64,000 bases of DNA from NCBI GenBank assembly GCA_946894095.1, contig OX335642.1:10985021-11049020 (forward strand), given 5' to 3'. This DNA comes from Incurvaria masculella. Lineage: Eukaryota; Arthropoda; Insecta; Lepidoptera; Incurvariidae. Both the position numbers and the translations under genes were made by a program. Below are positions 13,462-60,472 of the stretch, in pieces (position 1 is the stretch's first letter; every line of letters begins with the position of its first letter). Below the pieces are notes generated by a model that saw only the letters and a program-made list of their open reading frames with translations, made no database searches and was not told where the DNA came from.

Positions 13462-13489
13462 TTCTGTTTGCATCGACATTCGTAATTAA

Positions 13490-14020: not shown

Positions 14021-15044
14021 TTAAAAAATTTTTTCACACATACATTACAAATTTTCTGCATATACTTCTGCTTAACTATAGCTCTAACCACTGAGGAGAC
14101 TGTCGCCGTCGTATGGTCAAAGTGACCATATAATTGTATGGGAATCGGGCGGCGCTTCATTTGCCCACACAAGTGGAAACATCGCAACCGCACGCGAATG
14201 TTCTCGAAAAATGAATAACATAGCGCGGTGCTGGTGCAGTCAACTGACGCCGCCCCTGTGTGCAATATGTTGATACTTCGCATTTAAACGTTTGCGTCTA
14301 ATTTGCACACTTGAACTTTGATAGAAAATTCCATGCAACTTTTTAATTTTGTAAGTCCTGTTTTAAACGGTTATCTGCACATTTTCGGAATTTTGTCCTC
14401 ACTGTGATTGTGTCATCTGCTCAGGAATTTAGTTGACCACAGACTAAAATGAATTAGGACATAATATGCGGGTATGCCGGACATATGCTATGTGGTATGG
14501 GGGGAAAAACTGATAGTGCATCTTGTAGTTTGTATTGATGATTGTATACAACACAATGTGTATCAGTTGCTTTGTAGAGCTCGCCAGCGAGACACATTTA
14601 AAAAAAATATATATTTAAAAAGCAAATGTGTTATTTTCGATATCATATAAAAAATGCACTTCTGTAGGTCATGAAACAGTATAAAAAGACGAATGATGTT
14701 ATAGGGTGAAGGGCACCCTATTGATTTTTTACCTTATTTGATATTTCATGAAGTAAACTTAGCTAGTTCATGTTTTAAAAATAAAATAGGCGATCACTTT
14801 TTTTGTAAGCTCAAAAAAATGCTGGCTTCATCTTATATCAAAAAATCATAACTTTTGATATAATAACTTTAGGATTTATTACAGCAATTTATGAATTAAA
14901 ATAAAATGCAAAAAGTGCTCTGAGCAATCCAACATTTTTGCAATATGTGATGTGATTAAATGTGACTAAAGGCTGACGAGCGCTAAACGGTTGATAATAC
15001 CTTAATACTAAATGTGGACCGCAAATAAAAATCGATTGCGTTAA
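14021..15044. other. convergent intergenic stretch, no gene seen
   Basis: AT-rich spacer between the two TTAA MITE copies, downstream of both zinc-finger genes. I see no gene or repeat. Confidence 0.5.
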
Positions 15045-15586
15045 GGTGGCCCATCCCGCTCATCTCCCCATACAAAAGGGGAAGAAGATCACGCCCATAT
15101 TTCTTGTCAGAGATCCAAAATTTTGCTCAAAATAGCTTTATTTGATCGAACTAGATGTCTGATGACCATTGGCATTGTTGTTATTGTGTTTGGTTTCTAA
15201 GTTATAAGGTCCGAAAGTTCGAATTTTTCGCGTGTTTTATACAATAACTTTGGAGGTGGATTACGCAAAGATAAAGTAAGAACATCTTAAAAAGATTAGT
15301 CATCAGACATAGCTTATTTAATCAAGATTTATAATCTATTTGGTTTTTGTTAGATTTTGTCTACAGCGGTCGTGGTTTACTTTTAGCTATAAGTCGTTTT
15401 GAAATTAAAATTTTCGTAAATCTTACCAAATCATACGCTATGCACATTTGTCTTTTTTGTGGACATGTTGCATCTTCCTCATCACGGAGCCTGTCTTATT
15501 CTTTGAAACAGAGAAGGTCCCAGAGCGCAACAGCACGGTTCTGTACCGTGCCCGCGAATGAGTTAGGCCCGCCGGGTTGGGCCACC
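15045..15586. mobile_element. TTAA-flanked MITE, copy 2
   Basis: Same orientation and structure as copy 1, again with TTAA on both sides, ends GGTGGCCCATCCCGC and GGGTTGGGCCACC. Internal differences are small indels and substitutions. Confidence 0.82.
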
Positions 15587-28600: not shown

Positions 28601-31600
28601 GCGGCACTCGTAACGCTGTTCTCTTTCTTCTTCCGCGAACGCGTACCAACGCAGGCAAAAGAGAACCGTTCTACAGAATGTTCCAGACATACAACCAGAC
28701 TTTTAGTAACGTTGATATTTTTAATTGCAATCATGGTTCGTTTAAAAAATATATTAAAAACATTTTGGAATGACAGTCCTCTTTATTGTTTGTTTATTTT
28801 ATTGTTTGTTTATTTATAAAGGTTTATTTTTTGTTTAAATATATCAATAATAATATAATAACAATATGTATAAATATACTATATAATCTTTATATGAATA
28901 CTTATATGTTTAGTGGTTACATATACAAATGCATCGCAGTCTAATATCGCAGTAATAATGTTTAATGTTTTTTGCATGTTATTGCAGGTATTTTATTCAG
29001 TGCACAAGAAAACAATAAAATAATACATGGACACCTAGGTACTTTGTCAGCTATTTAAATACCATATTTTTGAACTCTGTGGCATCTGGTGTTGTGTAAT
29101 GACTTGTTGTATATTTTATTGTAATACTATGCTTGTTTTTGTGTCATTACATGTTAAGATGCTCTAAATAAAGAAAAAAAAAAGTATTTTGTCAGCTGGA
29201 GTCAGGTGGTCGTTCAGGTATATCTGCTTTTTGTCTCCTGGAAGCCTGACGTCACCGGTATTAATGCCGAGCCGCTTGCAGATGGCTCTCAGGACCTCGT
29301 CCTTAAGGGGGCGTCGATAGAATTTGACAACGATTAGCTTCGGTCGGTTGTTCGGTTGGGACGAGAAATGAGCAATCGGTTCGTGGAACTGATAATTTTG
29401 CCTACAAAGCAGGTCAACGGCCGCGGCGCAGGTTGCACGCTTGCGAACTTGTGTAATTCAGTGTTCAATATAATATCATCAAAAACAGTCGCATTTTATT
29501 ATTTGACGCTCAATAGATGTAGACGAAATGGATTTTGATTGTGTGTAATAAAAAGGTCGTTTTGGTCGTAGTCGGTTGTAAAAGAAAGGGTGATAAATAA
29601 TACAGACCGGGCAGTGCGTGAGGGCTACAAGGAGGTCAGCAAGAGTGAGCGGTCCAACACAGTACGGCAGCAACTCCAGCTGCACGCGTTCCGCTAGCCA
29701 CAGTCGACCCTCCGCCGTGCCGCCAAAGCACAACCTGAAAAAACCACCTTCACTTGCAGGTAGCCAGAGCGGACAATGAGAAGGTCGCAAGAATGAGCGG
29801 TCCACCACAGTTGGCAGCAACTCATGCTGCGCGCGCCCCGCCAAAGCACAACCTGAAACAACCACCTTCACTTGTAGGTGGCCAGAGCGGACAATGAAAA
29901 GGTCGCAAGAATGAGCAGTCCACCACAGTTGGCAGCAACTCCATCTGCATGCGCTCCGCCAAAGCACAACCTGAAACAACCAACTTCACTTGTAGGTAGC
30001 CAGAGCGGACAATGAAAAGGTCGCAAGAATGAGCGGTCCACCACAGTTGGCAGCAACTCCAGCTGCATGCGCCCCGCCAAAGCACAACCTGAAACAACCA
30101 CCTTCACTTGTAGGTAGCCAGAGCGGACAATGAGAAGGTCACAAGAATGAGCGGTCTACCACAGTTGGCAGCAACTCATGCTGCACGCACTCCGCCAGTC
30201 ACAGTCGTCCCTCCGCCGTGCATACTGTCTTCAGTCTTGGAGATGTGCTTGATTAGCACATCAATCAGTCTTGGGTTTTATCCAGAATAGGGTTTTATCT
30301 AGAAGGTTATTATAAAGTGTTTCAAATACCGTGCTGTACATAAGGGATTCTCCGGATGGTTCTTAGGATGTAGGTTACAAGTGCGACATCAGGTCCAAAA
30401 TCCAGAGAGATGTGGAAACATTGAACGTTAACGCGGCGAGTCGCTACGCATGATAGCCCCAAATAATACATCCTTATCTAGGCTTAATTCTCTTTTCTCT
30501 CCATTTACGCTCTAAAAGCTCTGTCAATGTTGACCTCCCTTCGCCTTTTGCAAACACTTGGTTGATATTAACCAAACAGAAGCCCAGAGTGTCAAATATC
30601 CACTTCTATCAATAAAATGGCTCTTAAAATGTTACTACATCGATAATTTACTTTTGAAATCATCACATGTTTAAACATTTTAAGGATTTTTTTACATGTT
30701 ACAATAATAAAACCATATTATTATAATTTTACTAGTAAAACTGTAATTTTGAAGATTACTGGGAAAAAATTTACAAGAGTGCGCCATTCTTAGCTTCTAG
30801 CTGGATATCAGGGATGGTAGAGTGGATTTTTAGAAGCATTTTTGGTCAAGGAACATGGGCGCGGAAACGAAGTTTTCTATCTAAAATATTTTTTTGAAAA
30901 TATGAAATCCGCTTAATAATTTCCACCCAATTGCGCCACTTACTAATCACCTGCCAACATTACAACCGAAAAGTGTTGCCAGACGCCAAATGATATATTC
31001 CATGAGGTTCTAACTCTAATATAAGCTAAATAAGCTTAAAAAAAGCCTTTTTTAAATGCACCTCGAAGCCCAGGCAGGTAAGTTGATGGCTACGCCGAAA
31101 GACTCGCTTGGTCGGCCCTTTCGCTACGCGAGCGCATGAGTCTCGCTCTCATACCTCTCGCTCCGCTCAGGACCTCCTGCGCGAGCTTTCGTCTCCGCAC
31201 TTCTAAAAAACACTCTAGGGATGACGCACACCAACATGTAATGTCGGGGCGGCTAAGTCGGTTTTGGAGCAATACGAGTACAGGAATTGTTAATTTTACC
31301 CTAAATTATGGGAAATTACACTATTGCATCGCGCGCCGCCATCGTCGTCGCATCGACGCATATAGTATCGCGTCGGAATACAGAACGAACGTTAATATTG
31401 CTGACGGGATTTCATATTTTCAAAAAAATACTTTAGATAGAAAACTTCGTTTCCGCGCCCATGTTCCTTGACCAAAAATGCTTCTAAAAATCCACTCTAC
31501 CATCCCTGATATCCAGCTAGAAGCTAGGAATGGCGCACTCTTGTAAATTTCACCCGATTACTGTCAACCAATACTATCTCCTTCAATGAACCTAACCAAA

Positions 31601-34232: not shown

Positions 34233-35208
34233 TTACGCCTTGCATGCGGCAGGCACGTGGAAGGTGCGCTGCTGCGCGTTGTCATCGTGGAGCTGCGGGC
34301 TTTCTCCGCGGCGGATGAGGTCACGGTAGACGCGGTACTGCTGGTCGCGCGCCGGCCGGCAGCTCACCGCCGCCTGCTGCGCTGCCGCCTGCTGGCCGCG
34401 GCAGCGCGCCGTGCACGCCGCCAGCGGCCGCAGCGAGATGCAGATCTGCCCGTCCTTCTCGAAGTACTGCACCTGCTGCTGCAGCTGGCACGGCCCGCGC
34501 TGCTGAGAGTAGCTGCGCGTCTTCAAACCGGAGCCGTGCTCCTCTTCCGACGATGACGACGACGACAAAGACGACGAGCTGTCTGAGCTCGAGCTACTGG
34601 ACGACGAGCTGCTGCTGCTGCTGCTGGACGAGCTGCTAGACGAGCTGCTAGACGAGCTGCTGTCGGACAGGGCGTTGGCGAGCTGGCTGGCGGATCCTGC
34701 GCCGTGGATGACGCTGAAGCGGAGCTGCTTGGGGCTATAGGCGCCGCTTTCGGCCTCGCGCTGCAGTCGCTGCGTGCGCACGTCGTCTGAGCCGGGCGCG
34801 AGCGCGTACGACGCGGCGAACTGCTGCGCGGTGTGAGCGGAGAGCACGGCGCCGCGCGGCGACGTGAAGTCGTCCTGCGGCTCGCCGGAGAGCGCGCCGC
34901 ACAGGCCGGATGTCGTGTTGCGGTACGCGCCGCTCGGCTCCACCGTCAGGCGATGGCCGTCGTAGATGGCGCGGAACTGGCCGCGCTCAATGTCGACCGC
35001 AACGGCGCCGTCGGGCAGCGCGAACGCCACCATCAGGGGCGCGTCGACGGCGTCGGCTTCGCTCCACAGGGCGGCGTGCTGCTGAGCCGACACCTGCTGC
35101 GTCTTGCCGTTGATGGTGATGCGGGCTGCGGGCTTGTCGGCGGTCGCGGACGACTCGCTCACGCCGGATGGCGCCAGCTCGATGCTCAGCTGCTCTCCGG
35201 CCCATGAC
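34233..35208 (-). CDS. Vg: Vg exon 7: vWD end and C-terminus
   Basis: It contains DGHR and, about 18 residues on, GLCG (codons near 34890-34905), the conserved vitellogenin pair. Then follow a polyserine tract at 34550-34665 (mixed AGC/TCG/TCC codons), a Cys-containing tail (CISLRPLAACTARC) and stop TAA at 34233-34235. Confidence 0.95.
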
Positions 35209-38200
35209 CTGCATCCGACACATTCCAACTCGTCACCTCCTCACATCACTTTCGAACCTCGCGGGGGCGTCAAAACAAAAGAACACTCACGTGTAGGAGA
35301 TGTAGACCTCCTGCTGGTCCTTGTTGGGCCTGCGGGCGAGCACTACCAGCTGCTGCTGCGAGCTCTCCTGACCGCGCTTGGTCTGCATGGAACCGTTCTG
35401 CACGACCACGTGCCATGTCTTGCTCAGCTCATAGTCATACGTGTTGTTGCTGAACGTGTTGATCTTGTTGGTGTCCAACGTGCACCACGCTGGTGTGAGA
35501 ATAAAATAAGCAGGTATGATAAAAGTATAATTGTGGTGTAAAAAAATATTAAAAAATAAAAAATTGTACAAATGGTCCCACAGTATAAAAAATTAATGTT
35601 CAAAACTAAGTTCAGAATATACTCACGCTGGTATTGGTCCTGGGTAATGGCATTGCCAAAGCGTTGCGGGAGCTGGCCAGGGTAGGCGATTAACTGGACA
35701 AGTGCGGGGGAGACCGGAGCATCGTTGACACGGATATTTCGGTCCTCACAGGCGATGCTCATGTTGAACGTGTTCCTGAAGTGCGAGACTTGCGCGTTCA
35801 TCTCGATCTCGCCCGACTTGCCACCGTTGTCGACGAGGTTCTCCTGCACGTACCAGTAACCAAGATGGCGCGCCATGCTGTACGCCTGGTACGTCGCATT
35901 TTTGGCCTGCGCTCCGACATTTTTATAGGTGATGGAAACCTTTATTTGATCGGCGGCGCGCGCTTGTTCGGTCATATTGCGACACGCTGGCATCTGATAG
36001 TTGCCCTTCTCCATTTGTCGAGTGCACTGCTTCGCTTCAGGCAGGTTGGAGAGCTGCTCAATGTATTGCTTGCTTTGACTCATCTTGCCCTCGATGTGGA
36101 CTCGGGCGCCGGATTGGGCCTTCTGGCCGTACTTGATGTCAACAGCAAAATTAGTCGTGCAGTCATGTTTCAGAGCCTCGAGGAAGCTGAAGGCAGGCGC
36201 ATTGGGGATCTTGGCATAGGATGCTGCCAGCACTTGGAATTGACCTAACTTGGGTGAATTCTTATTGTAGAAGAACATTGCTTGGACCTTGGGGTCAGCG
36301 GGACTATTAGCAACAGCGACGCTAGCTGTGTACAGGCATTTCTCAGGACCGTCAAACACGGCGGATACATCCACTACTTGAGCCTTGGCCAAACTAATTC
36401 CGGCTGCGACCTTGTTAAGCATTTGTTGACGACGAGCCCTGCTGTCGGGAGAGATATCCGAAGGTTCTGCTGCCTCAACCGAGCTGGATGATGATGAAGA
36501 CTGCTTCTTATAAAGCTTATCTGTAACAAAACATATTTCTTTGAAATGGTAAGAAATCAAAATTCAAAATCAATGCACATATAATATGTTTTCACACTAA
36601 CCGTAGGCGATGTGGAAGGTGACGCTCTTAGCCTGTGACTTTTGTCCCATAATCTTGACATTAAAATTGGTGGGCGCCACGTGCCTCGGGCTTAGGCCAA
36701 AGGCAAAGTTGCTCATCCAGCTATGCTTCTGCAGTACCGAAGCGATGTTGTGGAAGTCGCGAGACTGCGAGTAGCCTTGGACCGCGAAATACATGCCGGT
36801 AGACTTCTGGCCGAATTCGCTGTCTACTTCCGTAGTACTCTCGTCACACTTGACAATCTTGGTACCAGAGTCGTATGATACAGGAACGTTTGCGTCCTTC
36901 TTCTGGTTGGCGGTGTACGGCCACACGCTGTAGTGAGCGACCGTAGTATCCTGGTCGGGTTTCAATGGCGCGAACTTAATTTGGACCTTACCGTTATCGT
37001 AGTTGGCTTTAACCTTGATGGGGATGTTGACCTGGTACTTTGTGACAATACCGGCGGTGGCAACGCGGTCAGAAAGGGTGTCTACGAATCCAACACTGCC
37101 GTCGCGGCTCTTAGCGAACGTAAACTGTACCTCGGCATCCAGAGAAGCCGCCTGTGGGATGGGCAAGGAGGATGACTTGGGCGAGGGCTGCACTTGGCCT
37201 TGAGCTTTGCCGTGCAAGTGGACCAAAGTAGGCTCCTTGTATTTGTAGATAAACGGCATGCCCATCGCTAACGGGAACATAATGGACACTTGCGCCCCGT
37301 GGTACATCTTTGTGTAGTGGTAGTTGACTCCTTTGTTAAGTTTCTGAAGAGCGTAACCAATTAGTTGAGGCGCTTGCTGAAGATCATCCTCGCTAAAGGC
37401 AAACATTCTCTGCTGGTTCATTGTGTCGAATACAATATTGCCTTCTAGCGGAGCGGAGAAGTCACCCTTGATCTTCAGCATATCGGCAATCTTCTTGGCA
37501 TCGAACTTCTGGCTTGCGAAGCTCTTGGGATCTTTGCTGTGTCTCTGTTCAATGATGTCCTCAATAATGCTGGCTGCTTGGCTGACGCTAGAGATAGAAG
37601 CAGAGATCTGAAAATGCAATCAAAATTGATTTTAATTAATTGACAACATACAACAAGTTTATGAATTTAATATATTAACAAAGAGCCTGCTGACCATGTT
37701 CGACTTCATCCAACCTCCCATCTTTTGTATGTACATGTACAAAAACTGCTTTGGCAGCAAACTGTCTTCACTGCCGATGTAGGAAAGATGCTGGAAGTAT
37801 CCCATGTCGTGGTCCTCATCGCCGTAGTCCTTTAGGTACTTAGACGAGTATTGCCTGCCGAAATCTTCTTCAGTCAACATATCCTTAGCTGCCTGGGCGG
37901 CCTTGGCCCTAAAACACAAATGATTTTAGACGGAATTATTCCCAAAGGTAAAACTTGAAAGTCAAGCCATTGGAGTTATAAACAAACAACATGTTAATGT
38001 ACTTACAGTGGTTCATACTGAGGAGGTTTCAATGTAGCAGCTGTCTGAATGGCGGTCTTGATGGCCGAGCGGACCTGGATGCTAGGGTCGTCATGGCTGG
38101 CGAGCGCCATCTCGTGGAGCATGGCGGGCGTGGGATGCGCCTTTATCAGAATGAACACGGCGGCGCAGCGCACCCCGTAGTCCTCTGCGACGTTCTTGTA

Positions 38201-41200
38201 GATATTGTAGAGCACGGGGCGAGTCAGGTGCGGCTGCTGGTGCGCTAGGCGGTCCATGCAGGCGACCATCTGCGTGCGCAGGTACGCGCTCGCCGACTGC
38301 TTGCCCTCGAGGTAGGGCGCGAACACTTCGAGGATAGCTTCGTGTCCCAGATTGCCGATGGCGTGGATGTAGACCTGTGCCTGGTGGGTGTCTCCGCGCT
38401 GCACGGCGGCACGAAGTTCCTTCTTCAGCTCGGGCATGATCTCCTCGCGCACGATCTGGTACTTCTTGGGGGCGAGGCGGCCGTAGGTGTGCGTGGGGTA
38501 CAAGCGGTGGGCAGTCTCGTTGTTCACGTGGCCCATGTTGATGAAGCGCGTGGCGGCCAACAGTGCAGTCGAGTTGAGCGTCTGCTGTTTGCGGACCTCG
38601 GGGCTCATAGCTAACTTGAAGAACTCGGACATGACCTGTTTGGTTGGGTAGCGCAGGCTGTTGGCGAGCATCGCGATTGCTTCGGCGGCCTCCTCTCCCT
38701 GCAGGTGCTTGTTTTTGATCCAAGTCTTCACCTGTTGGAAGGCGGGTGTCGTGCCACACTGCACTACCGCGTCGCGGAAGATCTTCCACGCATCAGCTTT
38801 TGTTGGGTTTTCGGAGTTTTGTCCGCCCTCGAGAGCTTTGCTTGCCTGCTGCATCTGGTTAAGGTTCATTGCGGCTACGACGCGCTCCAGGATGATAAAC
38901 TTGGCAAGGACATCAGTCTTGGGCATGTTGTTAGGGTTCTGAATATGTTGGGCGATCTCCTGAGCGATATTTTGCGCAGTCTGTGGGTTGCTACTCTTTA
39001 CTTTGGAGTCTCCCTGCATGTGAATTGCAGTTATAGATGGCTCGTTCATATCTGGAGTTGACTCGTTTGAGTCTGAAGAGTCGGAAGAGGAGGACGAGCT
39101 GCTGGAGGAGCTGGACGAGCTTGACGAGCTCGACGATGAGCTGGACGACGAGCTTGATGACGAGGAGGCTTCATGCCCCTTCAAAGCATGTTGCGAGTGC
39201 TTGTTCAGACCGTTGGGGGAGGATTTCTTCTCGCTCCAGTCCGCAGGCAAGGCGGAGCGTCGCTGCCTGCTCTTGGGTTGTTGCTGCTCTTCGCTGCTGG
39301 AGGAAGATGAACTCGACGACGAGGATGAGCTCGAGGAAGAAGACGATGAGGAAGAGGATGAGCTCTGTCCAGGCTGCTTGGGCTGTTTAGGCTGCTTTGG
39401 CTTCTGTGGCCCGGGGTGTTTCTCGTTAGACTCGGACGAGGAGCTGCTGGAAGACGATGAAGAGTCGGAAGAGGAAGATGAAGAGGATGAGGATGAGGAG
39501 TCAGAGTCGGAAGACGAGGACGAGGAGGAGGAAGACGAGGAGTCTTGGCCCTTGCGCCTGAGGCTGTAGAGCAGGGAGCCCGCTTCGCGCATGTCGGCGG
39601 GCATCGCCCACTCGGAGCCGGAGTCCTTCTCGAGCTTGGAGAGCGTTGCGTTGACACAGCTGACGACTGTGGCTTTGTCGGCCTCGTACATAGTGGGAGC
39701 CACGGCCACGGTGGTGGTCACCTGCGCCGAGAAGATGGTGTAGTTGTGGCGCGCGGCGACGATGCGCGAGACGGTGGCCCGCTGCAGGAAGGCCTCGCGG
39801 CGCGTGCCGCGGCCGGCGTTGCCGGTCCAGTCGGCGCCGGCGGGCACGCCGAAGTGGTAGGCGACGCGTCGCGAGCAGTGGCCGTAGTCCTTGCTCTTGG
39901 TGATGGCGAGCATGTCGCCAGCTCTGTTGGGAGCGGCGTAGGGAGCGAGCTCAGGCTGGGCTTGCAGCGCGTCCGCCGGCAGCGGCGACACCGAGTACAG
40001 CGTCTCACACTCGCCGGTCACGTCGCTCTCCATGGTGCGGTATACGGCTTGCGAGGAGCGCTCGTCGTAGAAGTCGCGAGAGGAGTGGGAGGAACGCTGA
40101 GCGGAGAGGTCCGCCTGCAGAGCGCTGAGCAGACCCTTGAGCAGGTTCTCCTCGGAGAGGGAAAGCGAGGCGGGCACGCGCAGCGAGCGCATGCGACCGC
40201 CGCTCACGCGCACCTCTATCGGCTGCCGCAGCGCGTCGGACGCGCGCTCGTAGGAGAGGTCGGCTGGCATGGCGGCATCCCAGGCGGGAAGCGCACGGTG
40301 CACGGACGCGTGCGTCGCCTTCTCGAGTCGCACTTGCAGCCTGTCGGGCGAGCGCGCGCGTACGGCTAGCTCTCCCTGCAGGTGCACGCCGCTCCACTGT
40401 CCGCCGGCGCCGCCGAGCGACGACAGCGTCCGTGCGTCCAGACAGTACGTGTACACGTGTCCCGGCTGCCACGGGCTGCGCAGCTTCGAGCCCTCATCGT
40501 GCCCCTTCTGATGCTGCGGACCGCTCAGGGAAGCATTACTGCACACCGCCGCCGCTGCAGACAGAAATACTATTCATGCTATGCTCGGCCTCGTACCTGT
40601 TTACATGTATCTAGTGTAGTGTATATGTGTAATGCACCACTTTTTAGGGTTCCGTACCCAAAGAGTGAAAACGGAACCCTATTACTAAGCCTCCGCTGTC
40701 CGTCCGTCCGTCCGTCCGTCCGTCCGTCCGTCCGTCAGTCCGTCCGTCCGTCCGTCCGTCCGTCCGTCCGTCCGTCCGTCAGTCCGTCCGTCCGTCTGTC
40801 CGTCTGTCCGTCTGTCACAGGGCTGTATCTCAGTAACCGTAACAGATAGACAGCTGAAATTTTCACAGAGTGTGTATTTATTTTGCCGCTATAACATCAA
40901 ATAGGTAAGATTAAGAAATAATTAATATTAAAGGGGGTCCCCATACAAAAAACGTGATTTTTTTGTATACATTTTTTTACGATGGTACGGAACCCTTCGT
41001 GTGCGTGTCCGACTCACACATGGCCGGTTTTTTCATTTCCGAGGTCTAAATGAGCACTTTTATTGAGTGACTCGTGCAAAACTTACTAAACCGTACTATG
41101 TGATAAACCAAGATGTTTATTTTTACATTTAACGAAATATGGTTACGGATGATTAATTTTTCGCGTTTAAGCGTTTTCCGTCCAGTTAAATGCATATATA

Positions 41201-43291
41201 GGGAAGGTCCTGGCATCAGCCAGCCCGATCGCAACGAATCCCTTTAGGGTAATAAGGGCCTTTTTCACCTACTGCTGATTAGCTTAATCACCACACATCA
41301 AGGGCCTTTCTTAGCAGCTTGCAATGAATACCAATACAAGATAATCAGCACTTTACTAATAAAGGCCCTTTAAGTGTTGATTAAAATAAATCGGCACTTG
41401 GTGAAAACCAGGCTAAGTCTATTAACTATTTGTTTGTATGCATCGGTTCCACTGAGGAACATCACCTTGATCATGATAGTCAGCAAGTAGCGGAAGACAT
41501 TGGGTGACTTTCTAATTAACAAAGACAGACGTCGCTTGAAATGAGTAAAGAATTGTTTAACATCTGAATAATTCGTGAAATTTTGTGTCACATACATATA
41601 TATAATTTAAGGGTATCATGTAACTTTTGTATTTGTTAGGTAGCATTAGTAGTCATTTTACCATAATACCATTGTGCATAACCATCGCTCTTTGACCAAT
41701 TTGTAGAAAACCAGTTCTGCATGACCCAAGAGATAAATGTTCTATACCATGGAGATATAAATTGCTGAACTTGAAGTAACTAGGGGTTTATCCTCGCAAG
41801 AAGGTAATCCTTTTTGGGGTTCCGTACCCAAAGGGTGCCAACGGAGCCTCCGCTGTCCGTCCGCTCGTCCGTCCGTCCATCTATCCGACCGTACTTCCGT
41901 CCGTCCGTCCGTCCATCTGTCACAGGGCTGTATCTTTTTTTTTTTTACATATTTTATCATTAGCCATCATTAGCCAGTTCGGCAATCCCAGCGAAGAAGA
42001 ACTGGCAAGAAATTCCGCTGGTTTTTTTTTCAACGTCCACTTAGTCTAAGCTTGGTTTTCACCAACTGCCCATTTATTTTAATTGACACTTAAAGGGCCT
42101 TTATTACTAAAGTGCTGATCATCTTGTACCGGTATTGATTGCAAGCTGCTAAGAAAAGCCCTTAATATGTGGCGATCAAGCTAATCAGCAGTAGGTGAAA
42201 AAGGCCCTAAGTTTCATAAGATCATCAATCGCTCATATTTTGGAATTTGCTACCACTTATCTGATTTGAATGCTAATTGTACCGAAGTATGGCTTGGTAC
42301 TTCCCGCAACTTTAGGACTACTTGGCAACATGCTAAATCAGCAGAGGTGAGACCAGTGGGATAAAATGCTAATTAAATACTTGAGATCCAATAACCCGAT
42401 TCTACTCAAAACGCAGTAGTGAGTGTTAATTTCTTCTAACTTGCCAAGCACTCACCCGATTTACATGCGTATCTTTATACGTTACCGTTTTCGATGTCGA
42501 GGCTGGCTGCGGTTTGGAGTCCACGTAAAATTATCCCTTCGTTACTTACTTACTACGTATGTAATATTGCAGTGCAAGTGCAGAAAGGTTCTGGCGACAC
42601 ATGCCCTTAATTGTTTTTTTTTTCTTTAAATAGCAACCAAATGTTTCCGAAGCTCTTAATGGGAAAGATTTGATGTTTCTCATTAATTCTTACGATCTTG
42701 ATAAAATTTGGTAGATGAATACATTGTCCTGGACCAGCCTTTTAAGCAACTTTTTATCCATGTAATAATTCAGTCCGACATTAACCCGAGCGGAGCCGGG
42801 TACCGAAGCTAGTTTTACACAAAAATAGAGACAACATGTTACTATGGTAAAACAACTGGCCGGGTGAACAGGCAAGTAAGTAATTTAATCTGAAATTGTC
42901 TTGCATGTGACATAAACGTCAGGTGACTCGCTTGCCTGTTCACGCGGTGAGTTAATTTACCATTGTACAGTAACCACCAAGAGGCATTACGAGTTACAAA
43001 TCAACTATCGAAATTTCGCTGAGCTCTTCGTTTCCACAGGTTTTCACCATTGAATAGAGCAAGCATTTAAAGCATACACAAAATCGCCCGTCCATGGATT
43101 TATATATTTGTGTTGAAATATGAAATAATATAAATGTGTTGAAAATATGTATCTAAACAGATATAACTCCGTTCAGCCCAAAGTAGGTACGTGTGAGAAC
43201 ATAACAAGAGCAGAGAGACGGGAGACACAAAATAAGAAGTGGTTATGGTTAAGAGCTCACCCAAGAAGGCGACCAAGAGGAATGCTCTCAT
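34233..43291 (-). CDS. Vg: vitellogenin, yolk precursor
   Basis: Exons: 43291-43261, 40554-38007, 37908-37695, 37607-36602, 36520-35627, 35489-35291 and 35208-34233. All junctions are GT-AG and keep frame, giving about 1955 residues. Vitellogenin is the large lipid-transfer phosphoglycoprotein secreted by female fat body and taken up by oocytes. Seen here: a signal peptide (MRAFLLVAFLAAAVCSNA) split by intron 1; the N-terminal lipovitellin domain; polyserine linkers (about residues 349-505) around an RQRR cleavage site (~440); a DUF1943-type region in exon 4; and a von Willebrand D domain from late exon 5 into exon 7, with DGHR and GLCG motifs. A further polyserine tract (~1812-1850) precedes a Cys-rich tail. 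From memory, lepidopteran vitellogenins are nearer 1750-1800 residues; the expanded serine tracts probably explain the excess. The frame is intact and a TATA box lies at 43369-43375. Confidence 0.96.
35291..35489 (-). CDS. Vg: Vg exon 6: von Willebrand D start
   Basis: It reads PWCTLDTNKINTFSNNTYDY after joining exon 5 (C+CG, Pro), the usual start of the vitellogenin D domain. Donor TACAC|GTGAGT. Confidence 0.95.
35627..36520 (-). CDS. Vg: Vg exon 5
   Basis: It opens with a short serine run (DKLYKKQSSSSSSS), then a conserved mid-protein region, and ends QRFGNAITQDQYQ at C|GTGAGT just before the D domain. Confidence 0.95.
36602..37607 (-). CDS. Vg: Vg exon 4: DUF1943-type region
   Basis: Acceptor GCATTTTCAG, donor TACG|GTTAGT. 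It encodes the middle, open beta-sheet part of the lipid-binding module. Intact. Confidence 0.95.
37695..37908 (-). CDS. Vg: Vg exon 3
   Basis: Acceptor TGTGTTTTAG; the first base completes Leu from exon 2 (CT+G). It encodes AKAAQAAKDMLTEEDFG through GGWMKSNM, with donor GTCAGC in phase 0. Confidence 0.95.
38007..40554 (-). CDS. Vg: Vg exon 2: lipovitellin N domain and polyserine linkers
   Basis: The acceptor is the outer TCTGCAG at 40555, not the nearer GTGTGCAG. Only the outer one keeps frame with exon 1 and completes a signal peptide ending in AAAVCSNA. Three serine-rich tracts lie between 39070 and 39550, with PKQPKQPKQPGQ and RQRR between them. The helical lipovitellin region follows to CCACT|GTAAGT. 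Confidence 0.95.
40645..41033 (-). mobile_element. interspersed element with GACG array (copy C)
   Basis: A full-length minus copy in Vg intron 1, from AGGGTTCCGTACCCAAAGAG to CACATGGCCGG. Its tetranucleotide array is the longest in the window. Confidence 0.8.
40690..40818. repeat. (GTCC)n tetranucleotide microsatellite
   Basis: About 110 bp of GTCC repeats with interspersed GTCA and GTCT units, inside copy C. The Ser-Val-Arg-Pro open frame over it is not a gene. Confidence 0.9.
41160..41235 (+). mobile_element. SINE fragment
   Basis: A short match, TTTTCCGTCCAGTTAAATGC and GGGAAGGTCCTGGCATC, from the SINE body. Confidence 0.6.
41256..42207. mobile_element. Harbinger-like fold-back element in Vg intron 1
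   Basis: Arms of ~170 bp (about 41256-41420 and 42040-42207) are inverted copies. Ends GGGCCTTTTTCACCTACTG are flanked by TAA on both sides, a three-base duplication with GGGCC ends as in PIF/Harbinger elements. The interior holds GACG-element fragment D (41815-41936). No transposase. Confidence 0.75.
41815..41936 (-). mobile_element. GACG-array element fragment (copy D)
   Basis: Contains GGGTTCCGTACCCAAAGGG, a short imperfect array and CACAGGGCTGTATC. Truncated and nested in the fold-back element. Confidence 0.7.
42208..43260 (-). other. remainder of Vg intron 1
   Basis: No gene seen. A Helitron-type 3' end may lie at about 42770-42815. Confidence 0.5.
42770..42815 (+). mobile_element. possible Helitron 3' terminus
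   Basis: A short hairpin-like GAGCGGAGCCGGGT followed by a GCTAGT end resembles lepidopteran Helitron termini (hairpin then CTAG/T). Only the end is recognisable. Confidence 0.45.
43261..43291 (-). CDS. Vg: Vg exon 1: signal peptide start
   Basis: A 31-nt coding part, MRAFLLVAFL plus one base, before TTGG|GTGAGC. The ATG is the first after the probable start site. Confidence 0.93.
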
Positions 43292-46860: not shown

Positions 46861-47104
46861 CTAAAGAAATAACCTTACTTGTGATACTTTTGGGATTACC
46901 GTGGTCGTTAAATATATTTGAAAAATGTTACGGCTTTTTACGCGGCGGTAGGAGACATTCGCCGACGTATCGAGCTGATCGTTCAGCCCGTTGTCAAGGA
47001 GGTTATCCGCCACGTTCGTACGCAGCAGACGACTGACAACTAGACTCGCCGTGGTCGTAAGTCATAGGTGTGGGTCAAGGTGGTAGCGGGAATGCGGTGG
47101 TAGC

Positions 47105-47965
47105 GCTTCTACGGTCTTCCTAAAATTCACAAAGACGGGAACCCCCTTAGACCAATAGTCAGCCAGATAAATGCTCCTACCTACCTCCTCGCTAAACATG
47201 TCGCCTCAATATTTCAACCCCTGTCTGGCAAGACGTCGTCCTACGTTAAAGATTCGGCTCATTTTGTGGAATTGTTGTATACAGTGAAGTTGGCATGCAT
47301 GGATCTATTAGTGAGCTTTGACGTCGAGTCGCTGTATGCAGACGTACCAGTCCAAGAGTCCCTCGACATCATCAGAAACTTAGTCATCAGCAACGACATC
47401 GACACTGAGTGCGTCAAGCTCCTGCCATATTGTCTCACTAAGACATACTTTCTGTGGAACGGACAATACTACATTCAGCGAGAAGGTGTCGCAATGGGAA
47501 CACCAGTGACACCAGTGGTGGCAAACCTTTTCATGGAACCGCTGGAACACCGCACATTGCAAACTTCACCTCTTAAGTCAATGTTGTGGGTACGGTACGT
47601 GGATGACGTGATTTCAATCTGGTCACATGGTCGCCAATCACTCGACGCTTTCATCTCTCATCTTAATTAGGTTCACACAAATATAAAATATACAGTAGAT
47701 TGTGAGAAGGAAGGCACTTTGGCGAACTTGGAAGTACTTGTTGCTCGACGATTGGATGGAATCCTAAGCCACACAGTGTACCGCAAGCCGACACACACAA
47801 ATCGTTGTCTACAAGCTACTTCGCATCATGCTCCGGTGCATTTGGAATCGGTCGCAAGAGCATTGAGACTCAGAGCACAGCGGTTGTGTGACAAGGACCA
47901 TATCTTCACCGAAATGGACCCTGTGCTTCGAGAAAATGGGTACAATTTTCGCAATGTCAGTCAGT
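47105..47965 (+). mobile_element. Penelope-like element reverse-transcriptase fragment
   Basis: A single frame, broken by one TAG at 47668-47670, reads GLPKIHKDGNPLRPIVSQIN, then SFDVESLYADVPV (catalytic Asp), EGVAMGTPVTPVVANLFME, RYVDD and YRKPTHTNRC, the Penelope signature. Coding is cut off near 47965 where RTE sequence begins. No GIY-YIG domain remains. Confidence 0.88.
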
Positions 47966-50310
47966 CAGTCAGCGTGTTTGCGTCCACTGCTGGACATACG
48001 CCTCTCCAATCCTTCTCCAATCCTCCCGGCCCTCAGCGGTACGGAACCACTGCTTTCCGCCGACGCACTTGATCTCATCTTCCCACCTGGCGAGTGGTCT
48101 TCCCACACTCCGTTTGCCTGTTCACGGCCGTCAATGTAGCACACGGTTACTCCAACGGTCGTCGTCTCTTCGGCTGACGTAATCAGCCCACTGCCATTTG
48201 AGCTTAGCCACCCGGTGTCCAATATCGACTACTTTGGTACGTCGGCGGATTGCCTCTTTACGTACCATATCCCGTAGCGATATTCCCAGCATGGCTCGCT
48301 CCATTGCTCGCTGGGCAACTTTTAACCTTTGGACAACGGCGACCGTCAGTGTCCACGTTTTACACCCGTACGTCATGTCATAATCGGGAGGAGGCACTGT
48401 TCATATGTTCGGGTCTTTAAATTTTACGGAAGGTCAGACCTCAGAGCGAATTTAAGCTTTCCGAAGGCAACCCAGCCTAGTTAAATCCGTCGCTCAACCT
48501 CCAAAGACAGTGCTTGTATACCAAGCCGCAGGATTTGACTAAGATATACGTACTCTTCAACCTGTTCGATCACTTCTACTTCGATAACGATTTGTCCTCC
48601 CGTCATACCCTCAGTCGCCATGACCATGGTTTTATCCCGGTTCATCTTCAGACCTACCTTTATCGATGCTTTATAAAGGTCTTCCAGCATGGTTTAAAGC
48701 TGAACTCGGGAATTTTACAGAAGAACAATGTGATCGGCGTAGCGAAGATAACTGAGGAAAATTTTCACTAACGTTGATACCCATGTTGTCCCATTCAAAC
48801 GTCTTGAACACATATTCCGATGCGTTTGTGAAGAGCTTGGGTGAGAAAATGTGGGTGAGAAAGTAACGTAAATATAAGATATAAAAACAGAACAAATGGT
48901 ATTTTCGATAACTCTGTATCACGATTATTTGAAACCGATTACGGAGTACCTCAAGGCTCAATCATGGCACCATTGCTGTTTATTATTCGTATTGATGACA
49001 TTGCAAAAGACACTATGCTAGTACTTCTCGCGAAAACCATAGTAATTTACGCTGACGACGCAAATGTAATTGTTACTGATAAAAGTATTGAAACACTCCT
49101 TACAAAAACAACAAAAATAATTTAGGAGTTGGGTAAATGGTTCGCAGCAAATGGGTTAATGTTAAATAGTGCTAAACACACTGTGTACATTTTAAGATGA
49201 AAAATATTAAACATGAAATGAATGATGAGATGTTTATCGAATATAACGATGAAGTCATAACGTTTGCAATATCTACTATATTCTTAGGCTTCACGTTGGA
49301 TCAAAAGTTACGATGGGACAAACACATTCAACGTGTTTGTGATAAATTAACAAAAGCTTGTTATTGCCTCAGAACCCTGTCTAAATGCTGTGACTTAGAT
49401 GCCCTGAAGAGTGCCTACTTCGGTTATTTATACTCTGTCATGACCAATGGCATTGAGTTCTGGGGTTCTTCAGGGGAAGCGGTTTCAGTATTTAGACTAC
49501 AAAAGAAAGCAATTCGGATAATTACACACTCTAAATGGGACGCACTTGTTTGCACGCCTTTGTTTAAAAACCTAAAATTGCATACTAAGTATGATGTGTA
49601 CGTACAAAGAACTATTTTTTATGTGAGAAATTACCCGGAATTATATAATAATTTTGAACACGGATATTCGACGAGAAATAAAAATGTGATCCAGCAAGCT
49701 GCACACTCAACATCAAAATTTGAGAAGGGTGTCCACTTCAATAGTATTAATATGTATAATAAGCTACCAAGAGACTTGCGAGAAGAAACTAACATAAGAT
49801 TTAAAAATAAGTTAAGTACATGGTTGCTTGACAAAACTTTCTACGATTTAAGTTATTTTAATATTATTGTGAAAAACTACGAATTCACATGATTGGTATC
49901 AATATTATAATCTGTTATGCAAATTCTTAATATTGTAAAAACACTGCGAATAAAAATATTTCGATTTGATATTTTTGATTTTATTTGATTTGAGATCACA
50001 TCCCCCTGCCTAACGCTTTTACCAAGAGGGATGGGTTGGGTATTTTCATGGAGCCTCACAGTCATCGTCGCGGACCGATACAGAATTCGGATCACCTCGA
50101 TGTAGCGGTGGTCGATTCTGCACCTCAGAAGGGAGTTTTCGACGGCCCATTTTTCAACTGAGTCGAACGCCTTCTCGTAGTCCACGAAGGCTACAAAGAG
50201 CGGCTTGTTGTACTCCTCCTTCTAGCTAGCTTAGCCACCCGGTGTCCAATATCGACTACTTTGGTACGTCGGCGGATTGCCTCGTTACGCACCATATCCC
50301 GTAGCGATAT
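47958..50310 (-). mobile_element. RTE-type LINE, interrupted
   Basis: Reverse transcriptase at 49993-50185 (DYEKAFDSVEKWAVENSLL, RQGDVIS) resumes at about 48856 (SPKLFTNASEYVFKT) and ends with the RTE C-terminal region at 48131-48397 (CKTWTLTVAVVQ, ERAMLGISLRDMVR). The gap is a separate LINE insertion. An extra 3'-end fragment of the same type lies at 50225-50310. Inactive. Confidence 0.8.
48857..49990 (+). mobile_element. LINE nested in RTE
   Basis: Contains GVPQGSIMAPLLFII, YADD and a 231-codon C-terminal frame at 49197-49892 (LGFTLDQKLRWDKHI, YSVMTNGIEFWGSS, YNKLPRDLRE). It splits the minus-strand RTE exactly between RQGDVIS and PKLF, with TGAGA on both sides. A stop interrupts the reverse transcriptase. 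Confidence 0.78.
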
Positions 50311-55704: not shown

Positions 55705-56091
55705 ATTACTGCGGATATTTTTCAAAACACGTTCGCGTATCACCCACGCGGTCGAGATCGAGTTACCGTCAAACATCGTTATATCGATGCCGTCAAAGAA
55801 ATATAAAATTTCATACGTCTGTGAAGTTGGCGGCACACATTACTCCAATTACTCTTTTATAGCCATGGGATGATGGTTTATCGTTAGTTCACGTTTGTTC
55901 ACAAATTTTTTTTTGTTGGTTTACACTTCCTTCCATGTTTTTTTTAAATATCAAAATGTGTGCCGCCAACTTCACGCAACGGCACACAATTTTAATTTCA
56001 TGTCAAATTCTGTGTGGTATTATGCCTCGGGGTTAGTTCAAGTTTGTTCACTAGTTTTCGTCGTTTGTTTACGGCCCCTACCATGTTTTGT

Positions 56092-56407
56092 AGGGTTCCG
56101 TACCCAAAGGGTGAAAACGGAACCCTATTACTAAGCCTCCGCTGTCCGTCCGTCCGTCCGTCCGTCCGTCCGTCCGTCTGTCCGTCTGTCACAGGGCTGT
56201 ATCTCAGTAACCGTAACAGGTAGACAGCTGAAATTTTCACAGAGTGTGTATTTATTTTGCCGCTATAACAACAAATAGGTAAGATTAAAAAATAATTAAA
56301 GTTAAAGGGGGCTCCCATACAAAAAACGTCATTTTTTTGTTTTTTTTTCTACGATGGTACGGAACCCTTCGTGTGCGAGTCCGACTCGCACTTGGCCGGT
56401 TTTTTAG
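56092..56407 (-). mobile_element. GACG-array element (copy E) inside left arm
   Basis: A complete ~316-bp minus copy, AGGGTTCCGTACCCAAAGGG to CTTGGCCGG. The right arm, at the mirror position (about 60185-60200), lacks it, giving an empty site and hence the exact element ends. Confidence 0.85.
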
Positions 56408-58027
56408 GTTCGAATTTGTGTGCCGCCAACTTCACGCAACGGCACACATACGAAATTATACTTCCAATTCTACATGCTATTATGCCTCGAGGTTAGTTCT
56501 CGTTTGTTCACTAGTTTTTTTTTGTTTGTTTCTGCTTATCTATGTGTTATTTTTAAATCCAAAAATCACAACCGTGAAGCTGGCGGCACACATTTGAAAT
56601 TTCAACGAAATTTCTAATTCCTATTATGCCAACTGACTAGTTTTCGTTTGTTCACTAGTTTTTACCGTTTGATTTTGCTTTCTAGTATGTTTTTTTTTCA
56701 AATTGAAAGGTGTTAAGTTGATCACACATTTACGAAATTTCCACTTTATTATTGCATGCTATTATGTCTATGGGTTATTTTTCGTTCGTTCACTGGTTTT
56801 GACCGTTTGTTCTCGCTCCCTAGAGTATTATTTTTTTAAATTATAAAATGAGAATATGGCGGCACTCCCGCAAAATTACGGCGTTTTCACTTGAATTTTG
56901 CATGCTATTATGCCTTTAGATTAGTTTTCACTTGTTCACTTTTTTTTGCTTCCTAGTATGTTTTTTTGGAAAATTAAAAAGCGTGAAGTTGGCGGCACAC
57001 ATGCAAAATTTCCACTTTATTTCCGCATGCTATTATGCCTATAGGTTAGATTTCGTTTGTTCACTAGTTTTTATCGTTTGTTTTCGCTTCCTTGTATGTT
57101 TTTTTTTTAACATTAAATTGTCAAGTTGACGGCACATATGCAAAATTTCCACTATATTTCTGCATGCTTTTGTGCCTACAGGTTAGTTTTCGTTTGTTCA
57201 CTGGTTTTGAACGATTGTTCTCGCTTCCTAGTGTGTTATTTATTTAAATTATAAAATGAGAATATGGCGGCACCCATGCAAAATTACGGCGTTTTCGCTT
57301 GAATTTTGCATGCTATTATGCCTTTAGGTTAGTTTTCGTTTGTTCACTAGTTTTTGTCGTTTGTTTTTGCTTCCTAGTATGTTTTTTTGGAAAATTAAAA
57401 AGCGTGAAGTTGGCGGCACACATGCGAAATTTCCACTTTATTTCCGCATGCTATTATGCCAATAGGTTAGTTTTCGTTTGTTCACTAGTTTTTATCGTTT
57501 GTTTTCGCTTCCTTGTATGTTTTTTTTTTTAAATTAAATTGTCAAGTTGACGGCACAAATGCAAAATTTCCATTTTATTTCTGCAGGCTATTGAGCCTAC
57601 AGGTTAGTTTTCGTTTGTTCACTGGTTTTGACCGATTGTTCTCGCTTCCTAGTGTGATATTTATTTAATAAAATTATAAAATAAAAACATCGCAGCATAC
57701 ATGCATAATTACGACTTTTTCACTTGAATTTTGCATGCTATTATGCCTTTAGGTTAGTTTTCGTTTGTTCACTAGTTTTTATCGTTTGTTTTCGCTTCCT
57801 TGTATGTTTTTTTTAAATTAAATTGTCAAGTTGACGGCACATTTGCAAAATTTCCACTTTATTTCTGCATACTATTGTGCCTACAGGCTAGTTTTCGTTT
57901 GTTCACTAGTTTATATCGTTTGTTTTCGCTTCCTTGTATGTTTTTTTTTAATTAAAATTGTCAAGGTGACGGCACATATGCAAAATTTCCACTTTATTTC
58001 TGCATGCTATTGTACCTACAGGTTAGG

Positions 58028-58168
58028 TGTATTTAATTTGCCGCTATAACAACAAACCATCAAAAATTTAAGGCGGTTCCCATACAAAAAACGTGATAAT
58101 TGTGTTAAATCTTGTACGATGGTACGGAACCCTTCGTTTGCGAGTCCGACTCGCACTTGGCCGGTTTT
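58028..58168 (-). mobile_element. GACG-array element fragment (copy F)
   Basis: The part without the tetranucleotide array, ending GCACTTGGCCGG, in the palindrome spacer. Confidence 0.7.
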
Positions 58169-58169
58169 T

Positions 58170-58440
58170 TGTACTAAGCATATACGTCGCTTATTCCTAT
58201 GAATGTGATTTGTAATCGGCCTTGAAGCATGGACACATTAATTAAAGTAAGAGCCCAGTAAAAGGAACTATTTTACGAACTGTCGGCTAACGATTGGACT
58301 TAGTTACCTCGGACTTAGGAACCTACACCCTGTTGTGCAGAATAGTATTAGGAACGAACACTTACCTATAGGAATGAAACACTGTGTTAGTAGGTGGCAT
58401 TGATTACGGGAAGAGGGACTGTAGGAGAATTCCAAATTAT
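58170..58440 (+). repeat. dispersed repeat with tRNA-Leu-like family
   Basis: Contains ACTAAGCATATACGTCGC, AACACTGTGTTAGTAGG and GTAGGAGAATTCCAAATTAT, joined directly to the right arm. The tRNA-like part is missing. Confidence 0.6.
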
Positions 58441-60472
58441 TCTAGCATGCAGAAATAAAGTGGAAATTTTGCATATGTGCCGTCACCTTGACAATTTTAA
58501 TTTAAAAAAAACATAGAAGGAAGCAAAAACAAACGATATAAACTAGTGAACAAACGAAAACTAGCCTGTAGGCACAATAGTATGCAGAAATATAGTGGAA
58601 ATTTTGAATATGTGCCGTCAACTTGACAATTTAATTTTAAAAAAACATACAAGGAAGAGAAAACAAACGATAAAAACTAGTGAACAAACGAAAACTAACC
58701 TATAGGCATAATAGCATGCGGAAATAAAGTGGAAATTTCGCATGTGTGCCGCCAACTTCACGCTTTTTAATTTTCCAAAAAAACATAATAGGAAGCAAAA
58801 ACATACAACAAAAACAAGTGAACAAACGAAAACTAACCTAAAGACATAGCATGCAAAATTCAAGTGAAAAAGTCGTAATTTTGCATGTGTGCCGCGATGT
58901 TTTTATTTTATAATTTGAATAAATAACACACTAGGAAGCGAGAACAATCGGTCAAAACCAGTGAACAAACGAAAACTAACCTGTAGGCTCAATACCCTGC
59001 AGAAATAAAGTGGAAATTTTGCATATGTGCCGTCAACTTGACAATTTAATTAAAAAAAAAACATACAAGGAAGCGAAAACAAACGATAAAAACTAGTGAA
59101 CAAACGAAAACTAACCTATAGGCATAATAGCATGTGGAAATTAAGTGGAAATTTCGCATGTGTGCCGCCAACTTCACGCTTTTTAATTTTCCAAAAAAAC
59201 ATACTAGGAAGCAAAAACAAACGACAAAAACTAGTGAACAAACGAAAACTAACCTAAAGGCATAATAGCATGCAAAATTCAAGCGACAACGCCGTAATTT
59301 TGCATGGGTGCCGCCATATTCTCATTTTATAATTTGAATAAATAACACGCTAGGAAGCGAGAACAATCGTTCAAAACCAGTGAACAAACGAAAACTAACC
59401 TGTAGGCACAAGAGCATGCAGAAATATAGTGGAAATTTTGCATATGTGCCGTCAACTTGACAATTTAATTTAAAAAAAACATACAAGGAAGCGAAAACAA
59501 ACGATAAAAACTAGTGAACAAACGAAATCTAACCTATAGGCATAATAGCATGCGGAAATAAAGTGGAAATTTTGCATGTGTGCCGCCAACTTCACGCTTT
59601 TTAATTTTCCAAAAAAAACATACTAGGAAGCAATAACAAACGACAAAAACAAGTGAACAAATGAAAACGAATCTAAAGGCATAATATCATGCAAAATTCA
59701 AGTGAAAACGCCGTAATTTTGCGGGAGTGCCGCCATATTCTCATTTTATAATTTAAAAAAATAATACTCTAGGGAGCGAGAACAAACGGTCAAAACCAGT
59801 GAACAAACGAAAACTAACCCATAGGCATAATAGCATGCAATAATAAAGTGGAAATTTCGTATATGTGTGATCAACTTAACACCTTTCAATTTGAAAAAAA
59901 CCATACTAGAAAGCAAAATCAAACGGTAAAAACTAGTGAACAAACGAAAACTAGTAAGTTGGCATAATAGGAATTAGAAATTTCGTTGAAATTTCAAATG
60001 TGTGCCGCCAGCTTCACGGTTGTGATTTTTGGATTTAAAAATAACACATAAATAAGCAGAAACAAACAAAAAAAACTAGTGAACAAACGTTAACTAACCT
60101 CGAGGCATAAAGCATGTAGAATTGGAAGCATAATTTCGTATGTGTGCCGTTGCGTGAAGTTGGCGGCACACATATTCGAACCTAAAAAAAACATGGTAGG
60201 GGCCGTAAACAAACGACGAAAACTAGTGAACAAACGTGAACTAACCCCGAGGCATAATACCACACAGAATTTGACATGAAATTCAAATTGTGTGCCGTTG
60301 CGTGAAGTTGGCGGCACACATTTTGATATTTAAAAAAAAACATGGAAGGAAGTGTAAACAAACGAAAAAAAAATAGTGAACAAACGTGAACTAACGATAA
60401 ACCATCATCCCATGGCTATAAAAGAGTAATTGGAGTAATGTGTGCCGCCAACTTCACAGACGTAAATTTCAT

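What the first reader, a model, noticed from the sequence alone, without database searches (positions are those of the whole stretch)
55815..60463. Giant Foldback-like element with higher-order repeat arms and a perfect 9-bp target duplication
A 4.65-kb palindrome has ~2-kb arms that are tandem arrays of ~140-bp monomers in a three-monomer order (~422 bp). It is flanked by exact AAATTTCAT repeats. Long arms of tandem repeats plus a 9-bp duplication are hallmarks of Drosophila Foldback elements (established). A moth counterpart with satellite-like trimer arms and no visible transposase is, as far as I know, unusual.
Basis: partly seen in the sequence, partly recalled or inferred. Interest (0 to 1): 0.86.

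Follow-up and report, generated by a model that had tools for sequence, protein, structure and literature searches.

The report
Foldback transposon with higher-order repeat arms
This is a real mobile DNA element whose two long mirror-image arms are built from ordered tandem repeats; ten copies with both ends are scattered through the same genome, nearly all with the expected 9-base insertion scar, so it is a new family of a known kind of jumping gene.

Summary
The element spans 55815-60463 (4649 bp), begins ACGTCTGTGAAG, ends in its reverse complement, and is flanked by exact AAATTTCAT repeats. Its arms are 97.4% identical, nested repeat excluded, and are tandem ~140-bp monomers in a three-monomer order. 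In the window's own assembly (552 Mb, 31 contigs) ten copies, this one included, have both ends: 9 of 10 have a 9-bp target duplication (8 exact, 1 with one change), 1 has none. One copy sits in a dispersed repeat; three empty relatives carry the 9-mer once. All 20 arms of the ten read abcd plus XYZ repeats, about 1.7 to 10 trimers. No transposase domain was found in the interiors scanned, nor this end within about 1.5 kb of nine MULE-domain places. Best reading: a non-autonomous cut-and-paste foldback transposon moved in trans by a transposase that makes 9-bp staggered cuts (MULE- or Rehavkus-like). Tetris and Rehavkus-1_TC are close structural precedents, so this is a new family of a known kind; trimer-ordered arms with a fixed outer block are its distinctive trait. 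Host order not confirmed.

The parts
55806..55814 (.). left target-site duplication AAATTTCAT
60464..60472 (.). right target-site duplication AAATTTCAT, identical to the left
55815..58026 (+). left arm: outer block abcd, then a three-monomer array (13 monomers in all), with a nested repeat inside monomer b
58443..60463 (-). right arm: outer block abcd, then XYZXYZXYZZ (14 monomers in all), reverse complement of the left
58027..58442 (.). 416-bp middle domain shared at 96-98% with copies on C26, C5 and C19; a deletion form of the longer interior of the C6 7.0-kb and C3 13.4-kb copies
55821..55839 (+). terminal box GTGAAGTTGGCGGCACACA, repeated at many monomer junctions; proposed transposase-binding site (inferred)
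60439..60457 (-). terminal box at the right end, same sequence
55815..56782 (+). left outer block, monomers a b c d (b split by the nested repeat)
56783..58026 (+). left higher-order array, called as XYZXYZXZZ
58443..59809 (-). right higher-order array XYZXYZXYZZ
59810..60463 (-). right outer block, monomers a b c d
56090..56399 (+). nested dispersed repeat with (GTCC)n, in a T run of the left arm only, so later than the last matching of the arms there; relatives at 3734-4039 and 40641-41033

Best explanation
A non-autonomous, cut-and-paste DNA transposon of foldback architecture. Shown: defined identical ends; insertion into a pre-existing site with duplication of 9 bp; at least ten two-ended copies, with one interior-deletion form at four loci; variants shared by both arms of a copy. 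Inferred: a transposase encoded elsewhere (or now lost), of a class that makes 9-bp staggered cuts, recognises the terminal box; further copies of that box along the arms act as secondary binding sites; arm length changes by unequal exchange or slippage, in steps of monomers and of XYZ trimers; and the arms are kept alike by copying between them, for example during break repair.
For: Own genome, 17-base end pattern: 27 exact places (20 in ten two-ended copies, 7 single) and 8 with one mismatch; reversed-pattern control 1. 9 of 10 two-ended copies have a 9-bp duplication: AAATTTCAT, GATTATAGC, CTTCATGAT, TAAAGATAG, CATCAGACA, TCTCCTGAA, AGTTATTAC, GACTTTATA exact; TTGAAGGCG/TCGAAGGCG with one change. 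A 1030-bp copy on C24, its right end decayed, has ATTGTTTCG/ATTATTTCG. Empty sites: the C6 copy at 12.64 Mb lies in a dispersed repeat, and three relatives (window 15041-15456, window 13486-13917, L042) read straight through with a single CATCAGACA. Four copies (window, C26, C5, C19) share the 416-bp middle at 96-98%. Of 13 shared alleles in the outer 570 alignment columns, 19 copy-level cases have the allele in both arms, against a mean of 6.0 and a maximum of 17 in 2000 random re-pairings. The terminal box recurs in the monomers, and CGGCAC is identical in all 7 monomer types aligned.
Against: The C3 13.4-kb copy has no duplication (AATGCCAAC versus CAATTATTT), and neither 9-mer matches any of the 29 other end-flanking 9-mers in hand within 2 mismatches, either strand; exchange between copies or loss of flank is assumed, not shown. 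In one search, 13 further copy-level cases have a shared allele in one arm only, and 4 of the 13 alleles are never in both arms of a copy; also, re-pairing destroys relatedness between copies, so inheritance of already matched arms is not separated from repeated copying. No transposase found: no Pfam family at E 0.1 in six frames of C3 element positions 6761-10720 or C6 7.0-kb positions 1763-5127; the nine MULE-domain places show no box at up to 5 mismatches, but only about 1.5 kb on each side was examined. Binding by a transposase is untested.
Confidence: 0.88

Rival explanations
1. A satellite array that happens to be arranged as an inverted repeat and spreads by recombination or circle reinsertion, not by transposition.
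For: The arms are satellite-like tandem arrays with a higher-order pattern, and array lengths vary widely between copies.
Against: Fixed ends in all ten two-ended copies, 9-bp duplications in 9 of 10, three empty sites with a single 9-mer. The trimer matches listed lie in copies and remnants of the family, apart from one 141-bp piece at C26 68.7 kb (174 matches, the weakest not listed; that search skips very common words, so a large satellite could be missed).
Confidence: 0.03
2. Assembly artefact: a mirrored or collapsed contig.
For: Long palindromes are hard to assemble, and the exact monomer numbers could be wrong.
Against: The arms differ at 49 of 1874 aligned bases and by a nested repeat in one arm only; the same structure recurs at ten loci with different flanks, arm lengths and private changes.
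Confidence: 0.02
3. A foldback element of another superfamily, such as Galileo-like P elements, in which long repeated arms evolved independently.
For: Galileo, of the P superfamily, has long arms with tandem repeats that hold transposase-binding sites (PMC3688188 passages; PMC3573991 abstract and first part of the discussion).
Against: 9-bp duplications at 9 of 10 copies fit the 8-11 bp of MULEs and 9 bp of Rehavkus given in PMC6446971 (passages); that Galileo makes 7-bp and P 8-bp duplications is recalled, not from a call. The genome was not searched for a P-type transposase.
Confidence: 0.1

Closest known systems
Tetris, Drosophila virilis and D. americana (PMC4079207: abstract, introduction, first parts of results and discussion)
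   Same: Long inverted arms with tandem repeats (~220 bp), an outer flanking domain, an inner domain and a variable middle; no conserved reading frames; 8-10-bp duplications; repeat number varying; no autonomous copy found; the repeats share a 37-bp stretch with the outer domain.
   Different: Here the monomer is ~140 bp in a three-monomer order, the outer block is itself four diverged monomers of the same repeat, and no long stand-alone arrays were listed, whereas Tetris repeats also form long arrays. No sequence comparison with Tetris was made.
Rehavkus-1_TC, Tribolium castaneum (PMC10218199 and PMC6446971: passages)
   Same: A satellite unit (164 bp, mostly five and eight consecutive copies) in the inverted termini; 9-bp duplications are given for the Rehavkus group.
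   Different: PMC6446971 gives Rehavkus terminal inverted repeats of 26-400 bp, a minisatellite before the 3' repeat, and a transposase with a PHD finger; here the arms are about 2 kb in the window copy and no transposase was found. No trimer order is mentioned in the passages seen.
Foldback (FB) of Drosophila melanogaster (by citation and recall only)
   Same: Long arms of internal repeats and, as recalled, a 9-bp duplication.
   Different: FB repeat units are far shorter (recalled); no FB sequence was compared.
Tm1, Meloidogyne (PMC3169594: abstract text and passages)
   [quoted passage not shown] 9-bp duplications; most members lack a transposase; one member without duplication is read there as a possible crossover product.
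   Different: Units of ~14 bp, asymmetric 7-bp ends, and a Phantom-like transposase is predicted for the family.
Galileo, Drosophila (PMC3688188: passages; PMC3573991: abstract and first part of the discussion)
   Same: Tandem repeats in the arms expand independently at each end, and binding of the transposase's THAP domain to sites in those repeats was shown by experiment.
   Different: P-superfamily transposase; different ends and, as recalled, a shorter duplication.

Membership tests
Foldback-type transposon (architecture) | Long inverted arms made of internal tandem repeats | tested here: met
Foldback-type transposon (architecture) | Dispersed copies with common ends and target-site duplications | tested here: met
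   9 of 10 two-ended copies with 9 bp, 1 without; three empty sites for one of them
Foldback-type transposon (architecture) | Arm length variable between copies and between the two arms of a copy | tested here: met
   9 to 34 monomers per arm over 20 arms
Mutator-like (MULE) superfamily | 8-11 bp target duplication | tested here: met
   9 bp; range from PMC6446971 passages. Other groups share this length, so weak evidence
Mutator-like (MULE) superfamily | MULE transposase encoded in a copy | tested here: not met
   none of nine PF10551 hits in the genome falls in a two-ended copy; no Pfam family in the interiors scanned
Mutator-like (MULE) superfamily | An autonomous MULE with the same ends | tested here: inconclusive
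   no box within about 1.5 kb of the nine hits and no end close to them; more distant or diverged ends not excluded
Rehavkus | 9-bp duplication and tandem repeats in the inverted termini | tested here: met
   comparison from PMC10218199 and PMC6446971 passages
Rehavkus | Terminal inverted repeats of 26-400 bp as tabulated in PMC6446971 | tested here: not met
   window arms about 2 kb
Rehavkus | Transposase with a PHD finger | tested here: inconclusive
   no Pfam family in the interiors scanned; the genome was not searched for such a transposase
P superfamily (Galileo) | P-type transposase with THAP domain | tested here: inconclusive
   no such domain in the interiors scanned; the genome was not searched for one

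The most novel reading that the evidence does not exclude
The arms are a self-contained nursery of higher-order satellite: trimer repeats arise, expand up to ten units and are homogenised between two mirror arms, all inside a transposon and away from any stand-alone satellite. The outer abcd block keeps one of each monomer in 20 of 20 arms of the two-ended copies because it is the platform on which the transposase assembles, while the inner trimer number drifts or is tuned as a set of extra binding sites.
Probability: 0.25. Interest if true: 0.62.

Novelty: new member of a known kind. Interest (0 to 1): 0.42.

Why it matters
Most insertions here carry their own target duplication and two arms that are still nearly alike, so ten copies give 20 parallel records of how ordered satellite repeats grow, shrink and stay matched. 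Higher-order repeats are mostly studied in centromeres (general knowledge), where such a reference is missing. The family also adds a case to the open question of why foldback arms gain tandem repeats, and long palindromes of this kind could promote inversions, as reported for Galileo in Drosophila (PMC3573991 abstract).

Tried and rejected
Autonomous partner. The C6 7.0-kb and C3 13.4-kb copies share about 1.07 kb of core at 96%. Among the 40 of 9716 candidates that one search scored, no third copy of that core appeared (two weak partial matches of 69-76%); the rest of that query is an abundant dispersed repeat, so a further core copy could have been crowded out. No Pfam family in six frames of the interiors scanned; in six single open frames one sub-threshold hit to a domain of unknown function, E 0.058. 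Nine MULE-domain places show no box nearby. Pfam re-scans of 6 of these 9 loci, plus strand only, showed the MULE domain in 3; one of the other three, L054, gave mariner-type domains instead and two gave nothing at E 0.01. L051 has its own unrelated inverted ends.

Other collections: no exact match to the terminal box or a monomer core in viral contigs, none to the box in prokaryote genome contigs, none to a nested-repeat string in viral contigs. No insect genomes beyond the window's own were available.

Host: vitellogenin searches (9 and 27 hits) gave one informative name, Anopheles aquasalis; the order stays unconfirmed.

The C3 copy without duplication: its two flanking 9-mers were compared by script with the 29 other end-flanking 9-mers in hand, both strands; none within 2 mismatches, so no reciprocal exchange partner was found.

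Print: searches on foldback elements with Lepidoptera or Bombyx terms, with MuDR, Mutator, NOF or Phantom terms, on Rehavkus and on higher-order repeats with terminal inverted repeats. Judged by titles and abstract openings only, no lepidopteran foldback family or trimer-armed foldback appeared; the library lacks most subscription journals. PMC5225508 was seen as abstract and outline only; PMC8277862 and PMC4298943 as single passages; none of these three carries a claim here.

Full report

Other copies. After several unanswered attempts, the window's own assembly was searched: 552 Mb, 31 contigs, window at C2:10985021-11049020. That search scored 40 of 62 candidates, so its counts are lower bounds. 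Ten copies have both ends, counting this one: C2, C26, C5, C10, C7, C6 (two), C19, C3 and C1, from 3361 to 13415 bp. A 17-base end pattern finds 27 exact places (20 in these ten, 7 single) and 8 with one mismatch, against 1 for the reversed control. Twenty stretches were fetched: ten for the nine further two-ended copies and ten for other places.

Insertion scars. 9 of 10 two-ended copies have a 9-bp duplication, 8 exact and 1 with a single change; the C3 copy has none. A short C24 copy with a decayed right end also has one with a single change. The C6 copy at 12.64 Mb sits in a dispersed repeat; three relatives of that repeat, among the sequences in hand, read straight through with one CATCAGACA where the filled site has two. 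This shows insertion and the 9-bp duplication directly.

Anatomy across copies. All 20 arms of the ten two-ended copies begin with monomers a, b, c, d in that order (in the window's left arm b is split by the nested repeat), followed by XYZ arrays. The short C24 copy is an exception, called as aabc, and box spacing shows that C19 has lost part of the block in each arm without losing a monomer call. Trimer number runs from about 1.7 (C5 right, XYZXY) to 10 (C3 left), and the two arms of a copy can differ greatly: 34 versus 14 monomers in C3, 12 versus 27 in C7. By my reading of the strings, 10 of 20 arms keep XYZ phase (an extra Z at the inner end allowed) and 10 have slips, mainly a missing or doubled Y. 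Calling used a profile from this window's right arm, so the classes are relative to it.

Interior. The 416-bp middle is shared at 96-98% by window, C26, C5 and C19 (407-416 bp); C10 keeps 156 bp of it, displaced into one arm, and C1 has a related 622 bp; in C7 and C6 (12.64 Mb) the arms meet directly. The C6 7.0-kb and C3 13.4-kb copies have a longer interior in which the inverted repeat runs on (1026 bp at 98.5% in C6, 689 bp at 91.3% in C3). The short middle is a deletion form of that interior, and four loci sharing it indicate that the deleted form itself moved. No Pfam family was seen in the interiors scanned.

Age and matching of arms. Over the outer 560 columns, copies differ by 2.0% on average and the two arms of a copy by 1.4%. 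There are 68 single-arm alleles over 20 arms, about 0.6% per arm, which points to one fairly recent burst; no absolute date is claimed. Two sites separate window, C26, C5 and C19 from the rest and are present in both arms of all four (a third in 7 of those 8 arms); three sites occur only in both arms of C7. Over 13 shared alleles there are 19 copy-level cases in both arms and 13 in one arm; random re-pairing of arms gives a mean of 6.0 both-arm cases and reaches 19 in 0 of 2000. A change starts in one arm, so at least some arm-to-arm copying, or regrowth of one arm from the other, must have happened. The test does not say how often, and the one-arm cases show that matching is not complete.

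Not a free satellite, as far as seen. The trimer query gave 174 matches; those listed lie in the ten copies or in a few remnants (C26 14.7 Mb, C19 7.6 Mb, C3 27.2 Mb, C11 17.3 Mb, C24), apart from 141 bp at C26 68.7 kb; the weakest were not listed, and the search skips very common words. Unlike Tetris in D. virilis, no stand-alone arrays appeared.

Comparison. Tetris (PMC4079207) is the nearest published anatomy seen. Rehavkus-1_TC (PMC10218199 passages) has a 164-bp unit in its inverted termini; PMC6446971 passages give 9 bp for Rehavkus and 8-11 bp for MULEs, but also Rehavkus terminal repeats of only 26-400 bp. Galileo shows by experiment that tandem repeats in long arms can hold extra transposase-binding sites, and the same paper says this is untested for Foldback and Phantom (PMC3688188 passages). 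That the box works so here is inference. No transposase ties this family to MULE, Rehavkus or P, so it is filed by architecture only.

Verdict. Real, well supported, and a new family of a known kind. The trimer-ordered arms with a fixed outer block are the part a specialist would note.

Noticed in passing
56090-56399; also 3734-4039, 40641-41033, 41811-41935: Dispersed repeat with a (GTCC)n tract and the tail GAGTCCGACTCGCACTTGGCCGG followed by T; nested in the element's left arm, with a related piece in the middle domain (58027-58170, 79%).
   Followed up: partly
55957-55988 and the matching place 60289-60320: At the a/b junction (and b/c) the box sits inverted within a 9-bp stem, TGTGTGCCG...CGGCACACA; inner junctions carry the loop sequence in the other orientation, as if it had flipped. 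Window 55940-56010 folds well as single-stranded DNA (z -3.2).
   Followed up: partly
L038-L039 (C3:7630140-7643554): 13.4-kb copy with exact ends but no target duplication, and arms of 34 and 14 monomers; possible product of exchange between copies, no partner found.
   Followed up: partly
34233-40573, - strand: Vitellogenin gene with long serine runs (hits carry PF01347 and PF09172).
   Followed up: partly
47104-48072, + strand: Reverse-transcriptase-like frames resembling Penelope-type elements (label recalled, no call).
   Followed up: no
23236-23910 and 29720-30197: Two short tandem arrays, 181-bp (3.7 copies) and 118-bp (4.1 copies) units.
   Followed up: no
13486-13917 and 15041-15456: Two members of a dispersed repeat that serve as empty sites for the C6 copy at 12.64 Mb.
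   Followed up: yes
L051 (C5:12675990): MULE-domain frame flanked by a 63-bp inverted pair at 98% (929-991 and 2359-2421), unrelated to this family's ends.
   Followed up: partly
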